The translations under genes and the position numbers were made by a program. A DNA stretch of 42,440 nucleotides from Bacillota bacterium (GTDB lineage: Bacteria; Bacillota; Clostridia; Christensenellales; WQRI01), in NCBI GenBank assembly GCA_009786825.1, contig WQRI01000002.1:19240-61679 (forward strand), in the 5' to 3' direction. The notes beneath the pieces were generated by a model, which worked only from the letters and a program-made list of their open reading frames with translations, searched no databases and had not been told where the DNA came from. Positions 1-40,636 of the stretch are shown here, piece after piece (within the stretch, counting starts at the first letter, position 1; every line of letters starts with the position of its first letter).

Positions 1-398
1 CCGCCGTAACCACTACCGCCTCCGCTTGCGCCAAAGCCGTGACCCGTTACATCTGCATTAGCAACATCATAGTTACCACCAAATGTTTGAGACACCCCCG
101 AAGGGTCTGCCCCTAATCCTTCCATCGCTAAAGAATAGCCTTTTTCTACATTACCTTTTCCAAAACTTTTCACACCACCGCAAGATTGCTTAAAATCTGC
201 CTTGCCCGCATCTATAGAACCGCCGCCGCCCCAAGCCATAAGTCCGCCCGCAACGCCACCTATAGCCATACCTGCGGCCATAATTTTCATTGCTGTTCTG
301 CCAGACATACCGCCGTCTACAACTTGCATTTCGCTTTTTTCCATTTCTTCGCCTGTTTTAGGCAATACTAAACGCATTCCTTTATGCTTTTTCCCCAT
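1..398 (-). CDS. Double-glycine-leader-like secreted/antimicrobial-type precursor (partial, C-terminus outside window)
   Basis: The frame is open from an ATG at 398 to the window edge, giving 132 residues with the C-terminus missing. A purine-rich ribosome site (GGGGGAAG) lies just upstream and a TATAAT at 456-451 could be its -10. Residues 1-30 look like a double-glycine leader: a basic start, the string LVLPKTGEEM, then SEMQVVDGG ending in Gly29-Gly30, with Met at -12, Glu at -8, Met at -7 and Val at -4. After GG comes a Gly/Ala/Met-rich hydrophobic stretch (about 38-60), then a Gly/Ser-rich polar region. Bacteriocin-type precursors cut by peptidase-containing ABC exporters have this layout. 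The leader resembles that of the gene at 40129-40551 (shared LxLPx[ST]GxE and GG). No exporter is visible. Function is inferred from layout only. Confidence 0.6.
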   Translation of the reverse strand, partial: MGKKHKGMRLVLPKTGEEMEKSEMQVVDGGMSGRTAMKIMAAGMAIGGVAGGLMAWGGGGSIDAGKADFKQSCGGVKSFGKGNVEKGYSLAMEGLGADPSGVSQTFGGNYDVANADVTGHGFGASGGGSGYG

Positions 399-582
399 AT
401 TTTCTTCCCCCTTTTTGCCATTGTTTACAGTTTTTCGTATTTTTCTGCATATTATAATACCTCAACGTATTATTAAGTTTTTTAATATTGTAACATATTT
501 GTTAATAAAATGCAAGCATTTTTACAAAGTTTTTTAATTTTTTTTGAAAAAAATTAATTTTCTGTTTTTTTGCCCAAAATAC

Positions 583-611
583 AAAAAAGCCGCTAATAAG
601 CGACTTTTTTT
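583..611 (-). terminator. Intrinsic terminator downstream of the PBP gene
   Basis: A hairpin with stem AGTCGCT/AGCGGCT (one mismatch) and a short TTAT-type loop has T-runs on both sides, so it can act in either direction. It lies after the PBP gene on the minus strand and before the promoter region of the gene at 398. Confidence 0.6.
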
Positions 612-613
612 AT

Positions 614-783
614 TTAACATTGAATACTTAACATTGAACATTGAACACTGAACAATGGTTTCACCGCTAGCGCGGGCAAAATAATTTTAGCAAAATACAC
701 GAAAGCGAAATGCTAACTGTTCAAAAGTCGTGATATTAATGTTGCGTAACCATTATTCAATATTCATTGTTCATTATTCATTC
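614..783. repeat. Heptad-armed palindromic element, copy 1a
   Basis: The left arm (614-660) is made of 7-bp units of the TGAACAT/TTAACAT type. The right arm (748-782) is complementary to it (AACAATGGTT against AACCATTATT). Inside lie the core CACCGCTAGCGCGGGCAA (663-680) and the motif AACTGTTCAAAAGT (714-727). The same two motifs recur in the other copies. The element sits between the PBP stop codon and its terminator. Confidence 0.7.
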
Positions 784-2919: not shown

Positions 2920-2988
2920 TAAGCCACACGAACATAGTAATAGTAACGCAATCTAGTCGCGTTGCAAAACTTTAATGGAGGAATAATT

Positions 2989-3246
2989 ATGCCAATAATA
3001 CCAATCAGAGATTTAAAAGATACTGTTGCCATAGAAAAACTTTGCGCGATGGGCGAGCCTGTGTTTATAACAAAAAATGGCTATGGTAGACTTGTTGTTA
3101 TGGATATCGATACTTACAACAAAAAATTCAAAGAAACTAACGAAGCAAAACTGGTAAACGAAGCACTTAAAGAAATCGACAGCGGTACACCCCTTCTAGA
3201 TGGCGAAAATGTCAAAGCGGAGATGATAGCAAAATATGCAAAATAA
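2989..3246 (+). CDS. Type II antitoxin, YefM/Phd family
   Basis: An 85-residue protein. The start at 2989 is chosen because GGAGGA lies six bases before it; an in-frame TTG at 2962 has no ribosome site. The N-terminus (IPIRDLKDT, then a short helix and EPVFITKNGYGRLVVMD) is the Phd/YefM DNA-binding and dimerisation fold. The C-terminal part (about 50-85) is charged and probably wraps the toxin. The last codons overlap the toxin gene by 11 bases, which couples their translation. Expected role: neutralise the downstream RelE/ParE-like toxin and, with it, repress the promoter at 2891-2919. Confidence 0.85.
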   Translation: MPIIPIRDLKDTVAIEKLCAMGEPVFITKNGYGRLVVMDIDTYNKKFKETNEAKLVNEALKEIDSGTPLLDGENVKAEMIAKYAK

Positions 3247-3562
3247 ATATGATTATAAATTTACATCTTTAGCAGAGCGTGATTTATACAGCGCCTTAGA
3301 ATACATCGAATTACAACTGAAAAATCCAAAAGCGGCAAAAGATTTAGTTATTCAATTTTACGAAAAATTAGACCTAATCAGAGAGTTTCCAAATTCAGGC
3401 GCACCTGTCCACAACGAATACATATTAGACCAATCCCTACGGCGATTTTTTGTAGGCAACTATACCTGCTTTTACAAGGCTGATGAAAAGACAGCAACTA
3501 TTATAATAGTGCGAGTAGTCTACGGCGCAAGAGATATGGACGAAGTCTTAAAAAACACTTGA
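3236..3562 (+). CDS. RelE/ParE-family toxin
   Basis: A 108-residue protein of the RelE/ParE superfamily. It has the typical two N-terminal helices (AERDLYSALEYIE...), the LIREFPNSGAP turn, and the C-terminal strands RRFFVGNYTCFYKAD and IIIVRVVYGARDMDE. The pattern vYGaRD is the usual end of this family. RelE members cut mRNA on the ribosome and ParE members poison gyrase; this sequence does not decide which, though the R-Y-R-type C-terminus leans to RelE/YoeB-like enzymes. It overlaps its antitoxin by 11 bases and is followed by a strong terminator, so the pair is a self-contained two-gene operon read opposite to its neighbours. Confidence 0.85.
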   Translation: MQNKYDYKFTSLAERDLYSALEYIELQLKNPKAAKDLVIQFYEKLDLIREFPNSGAPVHNEYILDQSLRRFFVGNYTCFYKADEKTATIIIVRVVYGARDMDEVLKNT

Positions 3563-13997: not shown

Positions 13998-14551
13998 TTA
14001 ACGCGCTCTACATACTCACCTGACCTCGTATCTATCTTTATGCGCTCGCCGTTGTTAACAAAAAGTGGTACTTGCACAACAAGCCCTGTCTCTACAGTTG
14101 CTGGCTTAAGCACGCCTTGCGCCGTGTCGCCACGCGCACCCGGCTCGCACTCTATAATATTAAGTTCTACAAAAATCGGCGGCTCTACAGAAAAAGGCTC
14201 GCCCTTATAAAACTTAACTTGAACCTCTTCGTTCTCTGTTATGTATTTAAGCGCCTCTTCTACCATAGACTCGTTTAATGGGATTAAGTTCCAATCTTGG
14301 TCTGCAAAATAATATAAGCCCCCATCGTTGTAAGAGTAACTCATTTTCTTTTGCTCTATATGCGCTTTTGGAAATTTGTCTGAGGGGCTGAAAGTTTTTT
14401 CTAAAACCGCACCCGTTACCACATTTCTAATTTTTGTTCTAACAAAAGCCGCGCCCTTGCCCGGCTTTACGTGCTGAAATGAAACTACTGTAAAAACAGC
14501 GCCGTCCATCTCAAATGTTTGTCCATTTCTAAAATCTCCCGCAAAAATCAT
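13991..14551 (-). CDS. efp: Translation elongation factor P
   Basis: A 186-residue EF-P, the normal length. It binds ribosomes stalled on proline runs and helps peptide bond formation. The ATG at 14551 has GGAGG five to eight bases upstream; upstream in-frame codons belong to a repeat element. Domain I (1-65) carries [13 protein letters not shown] with Lys32 at the loop tip, the position modified in many bacteria. Domains II and III follow, ending [19 protein letters not shown]. Its neighbour upstream is a Xaa-Pro peptidase gene, the usual Bacillota partner. The stop codon is embedded in the terminal repeat of a family 2 element. Confidence 0.95.
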
Positions 14552-14566
14552 ATTAACCTCCGATTT

Positions 14567-14720
14567 AGTGTAAAGTGTAAAATGTAAAGTGGATGCAAAC
14601 ATTAATACCACAACTTTTGAACAGTCGCAAGTCACATAATATAAGCATTTTGTCAAGACAAATATTGCCCGCGCTAGCGGCTAAATAACTTTACACTCTA
14701 CACTTTACATTTTACACTCT
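14567..14720. repeat. Heptad-armed palindromic element, copy 1c
   Basis: The left arm (14570-14590) is built from TAAAGTG/TAAAATG units, and the right arm (14689-14720) contains the exact reverse complement of AGTGTAAAATGTAAAGTG. The core is inverted compared with copy 1a (TTGCCCGCGCTAGCGG near 14668), and the AACTTTTGAACAGT motif near 14612 is likewise inverted. It begins directly after the TAG of the peptidase gene and runs to 16 bases before the efp start. Confidence 0.8.
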
Positions 14721-15797
14721 CTACAATACTCTCAAAGCCTTTGCAAACTTTGTTAAGTTTTCTGTTCCGCCGTCCCTTATAACTAGCAAGTCTTCTATCC
14801 TAACGCCGCCAAGCCCAGACACATAAATGCCCGGCTCGACAGTTATAACCATACCCGGCATAAGCACTTCTTCCGAGCGTGAAGATACGCGCGGCAACTC
14901 GTGTACATAAATGCCCACCCCGTGTCCTAGCCCGTGTCCGAAATACTCGCCGTAACCATTTGCCGTTATAAACTCTCGCGCATAACTATCCGCCTCTTTA
15001 CACGACACACCCGCCTTAATGTTGTTTATAGCGTAAATCTGCGCCTTTAAAACGATGTCGTATATGCGCTCTAGCCGCGCGTCTGGCTTGTCGTAAAAGG
15101 CAAACGTGCGCGTCATATCAGAACAATAACCATTTGTTTTACAACCAAAATCTATAAGCACCATATCGCCCTTAGCAAGTTTGTTATCAGATGGCTTTGC
15201 GTGCGGCTTAGAAGAATTTGCGCCAAAAGCCACAATCGTATCAAAAGCGGGCGCTTCGCTTCCTAACTTTAGTGCTATGTAGTTAAGTTCTGCCGCTATG
15301 TCAAACTCTGTAACGCCAACCTTTAGTTTTGGCAAAAGTTTTGTTAAAGCCTTTTCTGCAATGTCTTGAGCCTTTGCTATGTTAGAGATTTCGTCTTCTG
15401 TTTTTATTGCTTTTTGGCGCTCTATCTCTACAGATACATTTATAAGCGTGCAAAAATCTAACTCTTTAGCCAACCTGTCGTATGCAGACCACGCTAAAAA
15501 GTCGCCTTCTACACCAACAATGTTAGCGCGCGCGCTTTTTAAAATTTGCTTTATTTTGCTATAAAAAGCATCTTGCCCTACCAACTCTACTTCTATATCG
15601 GTCGCTATTTTTTCTCTGGCATCTTCTGTATATCTGAAGTCTGTTAAGTAGACAGCCTTGCCCTTTCTGGTTGCAATAAATGCACCATTGCTTGCCTTAA
15701 AGCCCGTATAATAAAAATTGTTAAGCGGGCTTAAAACAATAAGCGCGTCTACATTGTCTTTGGCATATTTTTCAAAAAATGTTTTGTGTCTTTGCAT
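14721..15797 (-). CDS. Xaa-Pro peptidase (M24 family)
   Basis: A 358-residue metallopeptidase of the M24B group (PepQ/PepP/YqhT type) that removes or splits residues next to proline. An N-terminal creatinase-like domain (1-125) precedes the pita-bread catalytic domain. The dinuclear metal ligands are visible in order: Asp in LIDFGCKTNG, Asp in CSDMTRTF, His in GHGLGHGVG, Glu in TVEPGIY and Glu in GVRIEDL. GAGG lies just before the ATG. It sits directly upstream of efp, as in many Bacillota, linking proline peptide turnover and proline translation by position. Whether it acts on dipeptides or longer peptides cannot be told. Confidence 0.9.
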   Translation of the reverse strand: MQRHKTFFEKYAKDNVDALIVLSPLNNFYYTGFKASNGAFIATRKGKAVYLTDFRYTEDAREKIATDIEVELVGQDAFYSKIKQILKSARANIVGVEGDFLAWSAYDRLAKELDFCTLINVSVEIERQKAIKTEDEISNIAKAQDIAEKALTKLLPKLKVGVTEFDIAAELNYIALKLGSEAPAFDTIVAFGANSSKPHAKPSDNKLAKGDMVLIDFGCKTNGYCSDMTRTFAFYDKPDARLERIYDIVLKAQIYAINNIKAGVSCKEADSYAREFITANGYGEYFGHGLGHGVGIYVHELPRVSSRSEEVLMPGMVITVEPGIYVSGLGGVRIEDLLVIRDGGTENLTKFAKALRVL

Positions 15798-15867
15798 TTT
15801 ACCTCATTTAAATTGAGAACTTAAAGCCTCAACCACTGTAATAGTGTAGCAGTTTTTCAAAAAAAAG

Positions 15868-16851
15868 TCAATTGTTTATGCTATTAAAATATTCCAACAT
15901 CTGATTTGCGTCTTCCGCTTGATGCCCTTTACTCTCGCAAATAACAACCGCTTTGTCCATTTTATACTCTTTAAGTAAGTGCATAAGCGGCTTGTAGCAC
16001 GGACCATACGGCTTAAAAATTATATCTTTGTTAGTCGGCTCTATCTCATCTGCAAAATTTAAGTGCTTAACCTCGCCTTGCTTAGAATACATTATTTTAC
16101 TAAAATGAATGTGCAGTTTTTTTAATATGCTCTCGCCCAACTGCTCGCCCACATAATCTAACACTTTTTTGTAAGCGTCTTTACTTGCACTAAAATCTAA
16201 CTTACCGCCTTTAAAAATAGTAAGCGCTCCGCCACCGCGCGCATTTATATGACCAAAGTCTATACACGGAATAAACAGCGGACTTATTTTACAAAGCGCA
16301 ACAACCTCTTCTAAATTGCCAAACTGATTTATCTTGCCCATAGTCTCTAAGCATATGAGTAAATTGTTATCCATAGCCTTACTTGGCAAAGCCCCGCTAC
16401 TACCACTAGGCTTGTCTGCCCCACCACTTACTAGCGCACTTTTAGCAAGCGTATTTGCTAGGGCTTCTAAATTTACTTGCGCATTTTTAAACGATATATC
16501 TCTCGCTTGCTTAGATGCACTTCCTATATGCACAACAACCCTATTGCCGCCAAAGTCTCTTAAAGCCTCAATAGACTGCACAATAAACATAAAAGACTTT
16601 TTTGTTTTTTCTGTGTCGTCCGTACACAAATTAACATAGTAGGGTGCGTGAGCGCTTAGCGCAATATTATGCTTAAGCGCCTCTTGCCTTATGGCTTCGC
16701 GCTTGGCCTCGCCAATACTCACACCGCGCCCAAAAGAATATTCAAAGGCGGCTAGCCCACGCTTTGCTAACCACCACATAGCCTGCTCTGTGCCTTTATA
16801 GCCCTCGCTATAAAAACTATCCGAATTACTCGCCACCCCAAATCTTATCAT
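15868..16851 (-). CDS. nfo: Endonuclease IV-like AP endonuclease (xylose-isomerase-type TIM barrel)
   Basis: A 327-residue TIM-barrel protein of the AP endonuclease 2 family. Endonuclease IV nicks DNA 5' of abasic sites using three metal ions. Matching segments are LSAHAPYYVNL, RVVVHIGS, NLLICLETMGKINQFG, PCIDFGHINARG and LHIHFSK, which supply the conserved His/Glu/Asp ligands, and the C-terminal AVVICES with the last Glu. It is longer than typical Nfo (about 280), partly through a Ser/Gly/Ala-rich insertion at about 137-165. Some substitutions near the ligands leave a sugar-isomerase-like role possible. The start overlaps the ribF stop by four bases (ATGA). Confidence 0.75.
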   Translation of the reverse strand: MIRFGVASNSDSFYSEGYKGTEQAMWWLAKRGLAAFEYSFGRGVSIGEAKREAIRQEALKHNIALSAHAPYYVNLCTDDTEKTKKSFMFIVQSIEALRDFGGNRVVVHIGSASKQARDISFKNAQVNLEALANTLAKSALVSGGADKPSGSSGALPSKAMDNNLLICLETMGKINQFGNLEEVVALCKISPLFIPCIDFGHINARGGGALTIFKGGKLDFSASKDAYKKVLDYVGEQLGESILKKLHIHFSKIMYSKQGEVKHLNFADEIEPTNKDIIFKPYGPCYKPLMHLLKEYKMDKAVVICESKGHQAEDANQMLEYFNSINN

Positions 16852-38689: not shown

Positions 38690-40093
38690 TTAAATATTTA
38701 AAGGTCTTATAACTATCACATCCCATTCGTGAATCTGTTGTTGGTATAACCTTTGTGTTAATTCGCCTTGCTCGTTAAAATAAATCATATATCTTAATGT
38801 ACCCAAAATTGTTTCGGTTGTTACAATTATATGGTTGTTGAAAAATTCTGCTTCGTTTACATTGCCAACCACACGCTTAGTTGTGTGAGATAAAGAACCC
38901 CAAGTTCCAAAATAAATGCCCGTTATTTTATATAAATCTCTATCTCTAACATAAAAAATTCGGCTACTCGACAATCTGAAAGCAGGTGTTGAAGTAATGA
39001 AACGCCCACCAAAAATGGCAAGTTGGTGATAATAAGTTGTAAATTGATAAACCTCAGCAAGCAGATAGCCATTACTCCAAGTACTCCAAACGGAAAGACT
39101 AACAAAATAATTTTCACTTAAAATTGCTGTACGTGAATGTAAACCGCCAAGGGCTGTTCTCGCGCTCATCGTAACCTTTCTAGTAATATTTGGCGCTGTC
39201 CATAAATGCGTATCTATGCAATATACCTGAACAGAGTTATTTGTAACCCTATAAATCAGACCATCGTCCCCTAATTTGAACCACGTATTAGAAACTTGCC
39301 CATCTAAATATATAAAGTTGCCAACACGCTCTGTTATAGAATTTGTAATTACAAAAATATAGCCACTCTCACACTCAAACACACCTAAAACATTAACATT
39401 AGGGTTTGGCATTATAGGTGTAAAATGTATTTCATTTTCTTCCAATTGTAAAAAATAATATCTTTCTGTACCAAACTGTGTTTGGCTTGCTCTTACAATA
39501 TTACCCTCTATATGCCTTATGTAGCGCATAGCAGACAGCGAATAAATATTTCCATTATGCCTATCTATTAAAAAACTTTGCATTCTGTTTGTAGAAAACA
39601 AATTGGTTTGGTCGTAGTCTATACCTACACGAAGCGACACATCAAGTGAAATAGAAAAGAAAATAAAAAGTTCTGTTATGTAAAGTTTTGTTATCTGCCC
39701 TTGAATTTGAAGTTGCATTATTCTGTTTGTGCCACATATGCAATAATATTCAACTTCACAAGCACATTCAATTGTAATAATTCTAGTAAACACTATATCA
39801 AACGTATTATTATCTCTGTCTATTCCAACTAACACACTATTAGTCGGTTGTAGGCTTCTTGCCCGCGCAGCATTATTTTGATTAACAATTGCTAAAGACT
39901 CAGCGCCTGCTAAATCCGCTCTAAAACCACTAAACATATTAGATGATAGTCCTACCGTAATATTGCCCGTGTCCCCCGGTGTACTACCCGGTCTATTTTC
40001 GCCATTGTTATAGTCGTTGTCACACGCGGTTAACGTGATTAACGGAACTAAAATCAGTAAAACGATTAATGTCCTTGCTATAACTTTTCTCAT
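38690..40093 (-). CDS. Secreted lipoprotein of unknown function
   Basis: A 467-residue protein with a lipoprotein signal peptide: MRKVIARTLI, a hydrophobic core and the lipobox LTAC with Cys24 as lipid site. The mature start is Asn/Gly/Thr-rich (DNDYNNGENRPGSTPGDTG). The rest is rich in beta-strand-like segments with repeated aromatic and Asn residues (for example DGLIYRVTNNSVQVYCID and DRDLYKITGIYFG), compatible with a beta-propeller, and has a Cys cluster (CACEVEYYCIC, about 113-123). AAGGAG precedes the ATG. It lies 35 bp after the double-glycine-leader-like gene on the same strand, so the two are probably co-transcribed. It has no name in my knowledge. Confidence 0.7.
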   Translation of the reverse strand: MRKVIARTLIVLLILVPLITLTACDNDYNNGENRPGSTPGDTGNITVGLSSNMFSGFRADLAGAESLAIVNQNNAARARSLQPTNSVLVGIDRDNNTFDIVFTRIITIECACEVEYYCICGTNRIMQLQIQGQITKLYITELFIFFSISLDVSLRVGIDYDQTNLFSTNRMQSFLIDRHNGNIYSLSAMRYIRHIEGNIVRASQTQFGTERYYFLQLEENEIHFTPIMPNPNVNVLGVFECESGYIFVITNSITERVGNFIYLDGQVSNTWFKLGDDGLIYRVTNNSVQVYCIDTHLWTAPNITRKVTMSARTALGGLHSRTAILSENYFVSLSVWSTWSNGYLLAEVYQFTTYYHQLAIFGGRFITSTPAFRLSSSRIFYVRDRDLYKITGIYFGTWGSLSHTTKRVVGNVNEAEFFNNHIIVTTETILGTLRYMIYFNEQGELTQRLYQQQIHEWDVIVIRPLNI

Positions 40094-40128: not shown

Positions 40129-40551
40129 CTATTGCCTTAAATTCTTTGGCATATCTCTTAAAAGCTCGAAGCCCCTTCTTGCTGTATCTATTTCTTCTTG
40201 CGAGCGCCTTCCCTTTTCCAAAAATTTGGTCAATTTCGCAAATACATCTTCGTCTGGGTCTCCGCCAGCCGCCCCGCCACCCGAGCCTTGAGTGGTTGGC
40301 GGCGCTACTGCCTCAGAACTATCAGAAAATACAATTGTCCCCGCCGCCCCACCTAAAAGTAAAGCCCCACCATAAAATAACGCTTTGCCAATAGGTATAG
40401 CCTTTGGAATAAAAGGTATAAGTGGCAATAAAAAAGCAAGTCCGCCACTAATTTCTTGTGTTTGTAAATGGTTTAATTCGCGCCCAGAATTTGGTAAAAT
40501 TAATTCTGCCGCCTTTGTTTTACAATCTAAATTCAAATTAAATTCTGACAT
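40129..40551 (-). CDS. Double-glycine-leader-like precursor with hydrophobic core
   Basis: A 140-residue protein with GGGGAGGA before the ATG. Residues 1-37 resemble a double-glycine leader ending QEISGG (Leu at -12, Ile at -4), preceded by ELILPNSGREL, which matches the LVLPKTGEEM of the gene at 1-398 in spacing and character. After GG lies a hydrophobic, Pro/Ile/Leu-rich segment (38-80; LLPLIPFIPKAIPIG then ALLLGGAAGTIVF), a Gly/Pro/Ser linker (85-103) and a charged helical C-terminus (104-140). It looks like a secreted or membrane-active peptide precursor. It lies directly upstream of the lipoprotein gene. No exporter or immunity gene is recognisable. Confidence 0.6.
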   Translation of the reverse strand: MSEFNLNLDCKTKAAELILPNSGRELNHLQTQEISGGLAFLLPLIPFIPKAIPIGKALFYGGALLLGGAAGTIVFSDSSEAVAPPTTQGSGGGAAGGDPDEDVFAKLTKFLEKGRRSQEEIDTARRGFELLRDMPKNLRQ

Positions 40552-40636
40552 ATTTTGGTCCTCCCCTTATATGTTATAAAAATTTATACGCTCTTGCGAA
40601 GCAATAGTGTAACTTCCGTAAACTAAATACTCTCGC

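What the first reader, a model, noticed from the sequence alone, without database searches (positions are those of the whole stretch)
1..398. Double-glycine-leader-like precursor at the window edge related to a second one 40 kb away
The N-terminus of this gene and that of 40129-40551 share a leader pattern: LxLPx[ST]GxE, 12-13 residues, then GG, with Leu/Met at -12 and Val/Ile at -4. After GG the two differ completely (Gly/Met-rich against Pro/Ile-rich), as expected when one exporter serves many cargos. The extended LxLPx[ST]G block upstream of the usual double-glycine motif may mark an undescribed leader class.
Basis: partly seen in the sequence, partly recalled or inferred. Interest (0 to 1): 0.68.

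Follow-up and report, generated by a model that had tools for sequence, protein, structure and literature searches.

The report
Many cargos, one peptide exporter
The two proteins belong to a family of about 63 small secreted proteins in one bacterial genome that share the same cut-off "address tag" and appear to be trimmed and exported by a single transporter with an unusual extra, inactive peptidase domain.

Summary
The gene at the window edge (full length 379 aa outside the window) and 40129-40551 share an ungapped 21-residue leader, LxLPx[ST]GxE[LMIV]xxx[EQ]MQx[VI]xGG. A profile of it finds about 63 distinct precursors in this 1.70-Mb genome, with largely unrelated cargos (leaders 41% identical on average, first 21 cargo residues 9%). 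The genome has one C39 exporter. Its active C39 domain is preceded by a degenerate C39 domain (Cys to Ser, His to Phe), and two long HlyD-type adaptors are encoded beside it. Precursors and both adaptors share a distinctive ribosome-binding sequence, AAAGGGG(G)A, which ties the scattered genes to the exporter locus. In about 395 other genomes of the order the leader occurs at most 1-2 times, on Bacteriocin_IIc-like peptides that mostly accompany a C39 exporter. So the leader is a variant of the classical double-glycine leader, not a separate class; the expansion, the cargo variety and the tandem pseudo-C39/C39 exporter are the unusual parts. Most likely this is a leader-directed, Sec-independent export pathway for a large extracellular repertoire rather than a bacteriocin locus. 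Cleavage and export are inferred, not shown.

The parts
3..398 (-). 5' part of precursor gene 1 (full gene 379 aa, continues left of the window to G000:C2:18498)
   Evidence: ORF and translation; full gene in L013:9499-10638
309..398 (-). leader of precursor 1, 30 aa, MGKKHKGMRLVLPKTGEEMEKSEMQVVDGG; predicted cut after the GG codons 309-314
406..413 (-). G-run ribosome-binding sequence AAGGGGGA shared by the family
40129..40551 (-). precursor gene 2 (140 aa); cargo related to those on contigs C16 and C83
40441..40551 (-). leader of precursor 2, 37 aa, ending LILPNSGRELNHLQTQEISGG; predicted cut after the GG codons 40441-40446
40562..40568 (-). G-run ribosome-binding sequence AAGGGGA (followed by GG) of precursor 2
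38690..40093 (-). lipoprotein-like gene (signal ..LITLTAC) 35 bp downstream of precursor 2, possibly co-transcribed; membership in the system unproven
   Evidence: no Pfam family

Best explanation
The two genes are members of a family of about 63 double-glycine-leader precursors in one genome, all served by a single peptidase-containing ABC exporter (PCAT) on contig C9. Mechanism: the exporter's active C39 domain (dom2) recognises the conserved leader helix (-12/-8/-7/-4), cuts after GG and passes the cargo through the membrane with the help of two long HlyD-type adaptors. The LxLP..G block at -21 to -15 is probably an N-terminal extension of the same docking surface. The extra N-terminal C39 copy (dom1) is catalytically dead and, like the C39-like domain of HlyB, probably recruits or tethers cargo rather than cutting it. 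The cargos (about 30-520 aa; hydrophobic/glycine-zipper, helix-plus-beta, collagen-like, coiled-coil) are probably a general extracellular repertoire (surface, matrix, competition). Shown: leader conservation, exporter presence, loss of the catalytic residues in dom1, shared ribosome-binding sequence. Inferred: cleavage, export, the role of dom1, the function of the cargos.
For: About 63 precursors: of 59 parsed, GG in 59/59, G(-15) in 58, 12 residues to GG in 58, -12 L/I/V/M 48, -8 E/Q/D 51, -6 Q 51, -4 V/I/L 56. Leaders of unrelated cargos are 41% identical against 8.6% in the first 21 cargo residues. One C39 exporter of 978 aa, above the NCBIfam cut-off for TIGR01193, with PDB matches PCAT1 and ComA. 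Dom2 has Cys/His/Asp/Gln and the A55/I59-equivalent pocket as Ala/Val; dom1 has Ser/Phe at the Cys/His sites and Pro/Ser at the pocket. Adaptor genes adjacent. GGGGA ribosome-binding sequence in 41/60 precursors against 5/164 other ORFs, p 1e-24, and the same G-run before both adaptors. In other genomes of the order the leader co-occurs with C39 (7 of 9, p 7e-6). No LanC and no sortase.
Against: No cleavage or export data. The genome is a 103-contig assembly, 86% complete, so a second exporter could be missing. The precursor clusters are not next to the exporter (nearest about 22 kb away on C9). The shared ribosome-binding sequence also precedes Sec-type surface proteins, so it marks extracellular proteins rather than this pathway alone. 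The PCAT1 leader-docking residues are not kept in dom1, so its binding role is uncertain. Modification enzymes other than LanC were not searched.
Confidence: 0.78

Rival explanations
1. The genes are ordinary class II bacteriocins: each is a killing peptide, and the family is a bacteriocin arsenal driven by arms-race diversification.
For: The closest relatives in the order are Bacteriocin_IIc-like precursors beside immunity-like membrane proteins. Many cargos here have glycine-zipper or hydrophobic stretches.
Against: Only 2 of 58 precursors match Bacteriocin_IIc (best E 1.3e-4) and 4 match a class IIb model. No adjacent immunity-like genes were recognised around the clusters examined; several precursors lie between housekeeping genes such as EF-Tu and miaA. 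Cargos include soluble helix-plus-beta, collagen-like and 349-524-aa coiled-coil or Gly-rich proteins.
Confidence: 0.25
2. The genes are RiPP precursors in the manner of prochlorosins/Nif11 peptides: one promiscuous modifying enzyme acts on many hypervariable cores before export.
For: Leader conserved, core variable, large paralogous family with one exporter, as in Nif11 expansions (PMC2887384).
Against: No LanC-like protein in the genome. Cargos are mostly about 80-115 aa and 35 of 59 contain no Cys. YcaO and radical-SAM enzymes were not searched.
Confidence: 0.08
3. LPxTG-like sorting proteins: the LP[x][ST]G block is a sortase motif.
For: LPKTGEE and LPNSG resemble LPxTG.
Against: The block is N-terminal, the x[ST] residues vary, no C-terminal anchor was seen, and no sortase was found in the genome.
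Confidence: 0.01

Closest known systems
PCAT exporters with double-glycine leaders (PCAT1/CtA, ComA, LahT; NCBIfam TIGR01193)
   Same: Active C39 domain, ABC exporter core, leader consensus -12/-8/-7/-4/GG; match to PCAT1 E 6e-174 over residues 193-909
   Different: Second degenerate C39 domain in front, two HlyD adaptors of 686/691 aa, about 63 dispersed precursors instead of one or a few
Nif11/NHLP precursor expansions and prochlorosins
   Same: Conserved leader, hypervariable cargo, large paralogous family, few exporters; 29 precursors in P. marinus (PMC2887384)
   Different: Leader is a short classical GG leader unrelated to Nif11/nitrile hydratase, no LanC, cargos are small proteins, about twice as many members
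EbfG1-4 / PteB of Synechococcus elongatus
   Same: Small GG-motif proteins exported by a C39 transporter for a biofilm role rather than killing (PMC4997328)
   Different: Four precursors only; cargo relationship to the present ones not tested; no extra pseudo-C39 domain reported in the passages read
C39-like domain (CLD) of HlyB-type type I secretion
   Same: C39 fold without catalytic Cys, needed to recruit and tether the substrate (PMC6363468)
   Different: Here it sits in tandem with an active C39 domain in the same polypeptide
Bacteriocin_IIc-like precursors of related genomes (L072, L082, L102-L111)
   Same: Same leader type with LxLP extension; HlyD adaptor and an accessory 160-aa protein also present at the exporter or precursor locus
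   Different: 1-2 precursors per genome, immunity-like neighbour, single C39, HlyD of 359 aa where complete (L082)

Membership tests
Double-glycine leader peptides (PCAT substrates) | GG at -2/-1 with hydrophobic -12, -7, -4 and acidic/Gln -8 | tested here: met
   GG 59/59; -12 LIVM 48/59; -8 EQD 51/59; -7 LIVM 47/59; -4 VIL 56/59. P0002 itself has Thr at -7
Double-glycine leader peptides (PCAT substrates) | C39-containing exporter in the same genome | tested here: met
Double-glycine leader peptides (PCAT substrates) | cleavage after GG during export | not testable with these tools
   needs protein chemistry
PCAT exporter (TIGR01193) | score over curated cut-off, catalytic Cys/His/Asp, TMD and NBD | tested here: met
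   592 bits against 523.85; dom2 DCGAA, AHF, ADP; ABC_membrane and ABC_tran
PCAT exporter (TIGR01193) | usual architecture with a single N-terminal C39 domain (typical, not strictly defining) | tested here: not met
   two C39 domains in one frame; the only such case among 396 genomes of the order searched
C39-like domain (CLD) | C39 homology lacking catalytic Cys | tested here: met
   dom1 matches PF03412 at 2e-15, Cys to Ser and His to Phe
C39-like domain (CLD) | binds/tethers substrate | not testable with these tools
   PCAT1 A55/I59 equivalents are Pro/Ser in dom1, so leader docking as in PCAT1 is doubtful
Class II bacteriocins (PF10439) | match to family model | tested here: not met
   only 2 of 58 at E<0.01, best 1.3e-4
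Class II bacteriocins | adjacent immunity gene | tested here: inconclusive
   no immunity-like gene recognised around the clusters examined, but immunity proteins are small and varied and function is not testable here
Lanthipeptide/prochlorosin-type RiPPs | LanC-like cyclase | tested here: not met
   genome 86% complete
Other RiPPs (YcaO, radical SAM) | modifying enzyme | not tested
LPxTG sortase substrates | sortase and C-terminal sorting signal | tested here: not met
   no sortase; motif is N-terminal

The most novel reading that the evidence does not exclude
A bacterium has turned a bacteriocin leader/PCAT device into a general protein-secretion pathway parallel to Sec: roughly 4% of its genes carry one interchangeable cut-off address, one exporter with an added non-cutting C39 receptor handles all of them, and a common ribosome-binding sequence sets their expression together with the adaptors.
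Probability: 0.45. Interest if true: 0.82.

Novelty: new variant of a known kind. Interest (0 to 1): 0.64.

Why it matters
Double-glycine exporters are usually thought of as dedicated to one or a few bacteriocins or pheromones; the largest expansions described in the paper read here belong to the Nif11/prochlorosin leaders. A single short-leader family of about 63 diverse cargos with one exporter would show that such a signal can serve as a general export address. It gives a natural set of dozens of leaders for deriving PCAT recognition rules, and a tandem dead/active C39 pair that makes the open question of what C39-like domains do directly testable in one protein.

Tried and rejected
Sortase (LPxTG) reading: no sortase, wrong end. 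Lanthipeptide reading: no LanC. Defence-system reading: PADLOC matches are to one member each, mostly SMC-like coiled-coil models. Viral contigs: no relative of P0001; leader alignment too variable for that scan. AlphaFold model of the helix-plus-beta cargo family (pLDDT 75) had no significant PDB match. The accessory 160-aa protein of the exporter locus gave a poor model (pLDDT 47) and no Pfam/NCBIfam match. Tandem C39 in plasmids: the listed top 20 of 1,359 records each span under about 560 bp, i.e. one domain. A literature search for tandem C39 domains found none described, in an open-access library only. An initial idea that dom1 is a second leader receptor of the PCAT1 type was weakened by loss of both pocket residues.

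Full report
OBSERVATION. Aligned without gaps they share L-x-L-P-x-[ST]-G-x-E, Met/Leu at -12, Val/Ile at -4 and GG, with exactly 12 residues between G(-15) and GG. The first gene is only the 5' part of a 379-aa gene whose remainder lies left of the window. Used alone as a query it finds 22 other places in the same genome, the best at E 6e-10 and mostly over the leader; the second finds 15.

SIZE OF THE FAMILY. From these I made a 49-row leader alignment. Its profile finds 61 places at E <= 0.0013 in the 1.70-Mb, 103-contig, 86% complete genome; 60 distinct precursors were read out. Three weaker candidates proved to be short ORFs with a recognisable leader (C1:90413, C26:1946, C38:9592), the first two preceded by the family's ribosome-binding sequence. 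The total is therefore about 63. They lie in same-strand clusters (C1 11 genes, C9 8, C2 4, C14 3, C51 3) and singly among housekeeping genes.

LEADER STATISTICS. In 59 parsed precursors GG is invariant, G(-15) occurs in 58, and the spacing to GG is 12 in 58. Positions -12, -8, -7, -6 and -4 are LIVM 48, EQD 51, LIVM 47, Q 51 and VIL 56. Cargos fall into 8 small similarity groups and 32 singletons; leaders of unrelated cargos are on average 41% identical, the first 21 cargo residues 8.6%. Cargo types: hydrophobic or glycine-zipper segments, a helix-plus-five-strand module (AlphaFold pLDDT 75, no significant PDB match), a collagen-like protein, Gly-rich and coiled-coil proteins up to 524 aa. 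Only 2 of 58 match Bacteriocin_IIc.

EXPORTER. The genome has one C39 exporter, 978 aa, L011:8793-11729. It matches TIGR01193 above cut-off and PCAT1 (PDB 4RY2/6V9Z) and ComA. It carries two C39 domains. Dom2 has all catalytic residues and is 62-69% identical to exporters of relatives. Dom1 is 44% identical to dom2 but has Ser at the Cys site and Phe at the His site, lacks the Gln, and has Pro/Ser where PCAT1 has the leader-docking A55/I59; dom2 has Ala/Val there (PCAT1 residues from PMC6959990). Among 396 genomes of the order only this one shows two C39 matches in one frame. Upstream lie two HlyD-type adaptors of 691 and 686 aa and a 160-aa accessory protein that is also found at exporter or precursor loci of relatives; the complete relative adaptor in L082 is 359 aa.

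A SHARED RIBOSOME-BINDING SEQUENCE. Most precursor genes have AAAGGGG(G)A, usually 5-11 nt before ATG: GGGGA in 41/60 against 5/164 other ORFs, Fisher p 1e-24 (start choice did not use GGGG for precursors and favoured it for controls). Both adaptor genes have the G-run. Genome-wide the pattern ARGGGGA-N3-9-ATG occurs 68 times against 24 for the reversed control. Its non-precursor sites include a second group of long proteins with a shared Sec-like N-terminus (KSKWFARLVMLAMGLVLSVGGVLG) and one with an Ig-like domain. So the element marks extracellular proteins in general and links precursors and adaptors. It can still pair with the anti-Shine-Dalgarno through one G-U pair (established knowledge), so it is a variant Shine-Dalgarno sequence.

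RELATIVES. Nine other genomes of about 395 in the order carry the leader, once or twice each, on hydrophobic Bacteriocin_IIc-like precursors; 7 of the 9 also have a C39 match (47 of 395 overall; p 7e-6). Their leaders (KRSNLVLPTSGYELDREEMSYVEGG; also LVLPEGFVEMDREEM...) show that LxLP belongs to a lineage variant of the classical leader and that [ST]G is not essential.

MECHANISM AND LIMITS. The best reading is export and cleavage by one PCAT whose dom2 cuts after GG, with dom1 acting like the C39-like domain of HlyB (PMC6363468). Shown by sequence: leader family, exporter, dead dom1, common ribosome-binding sequence, no LanC, no sortase. Inferred: cleavage, transport, dom1 function, cargo function. 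The genome is incomplete and unnamed, and no other genome of its family was available. Precedents for non-bacteriocin GG cargos (EbfG/PteB, PMC4997328) and for large leader families (Nif11, PMC2887384) make the reading plausible; neither has this combination.

VERDICT. Real, well supported and larger than reported; a new variant of the known double-glycine/PCAT kind. The claim of an undescribed leader class is not upheld; the scale, cargo variety and tandem exporter are what is unusual.

Noticed in passing
genome G000, e.g. L136:182, L146, L151:145, L153:191, L156, L099:560, L019:3440: A second group of long extracellular proteins with a shared Sec-like N-terminus (KxKWFxRLxxLAMGLVLSVGGVLGIVHF) preceded by the same AAAGGGGGA ribosome-binding sequence.
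   Followed up: partly
window 2962-3246 and 3236-3562 (+): Overlapping Phd/YefM-like antitoxin and ParE-type toxin genes.
   Followed up: no
L011:16427-16957 (-) with homologues L083:6995-7468, L082:2984-3487, L109:932-1429, L105:2143, L110:729-1205: A conserved 160-aa accessory protein of PCAT or precursor loci (56-61% identical to the relatives) without any Pfam or NCBIfam match.
   Followed up: partly
L011:11988-14048 and 14177-16252 (-): Two adjacent HlyD-type adaptors roughly twice as long as the complete one in a relative (359 aa, L082), apparently by a large central insertion.
   Followed up: no
contigs C53:10539-11192 and C63:236-889: The same pair of precursor genes occurs on two contigs, identical in protein: a repeat or an assembly duplication.
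   Followed up: no
window 610-660 and 755-790, also L011:8517-8750: Interspersed repeats of the type TTAACATTGAACATTGAACA / TAATTTGTAATTTG between genes.
   Followed up: no
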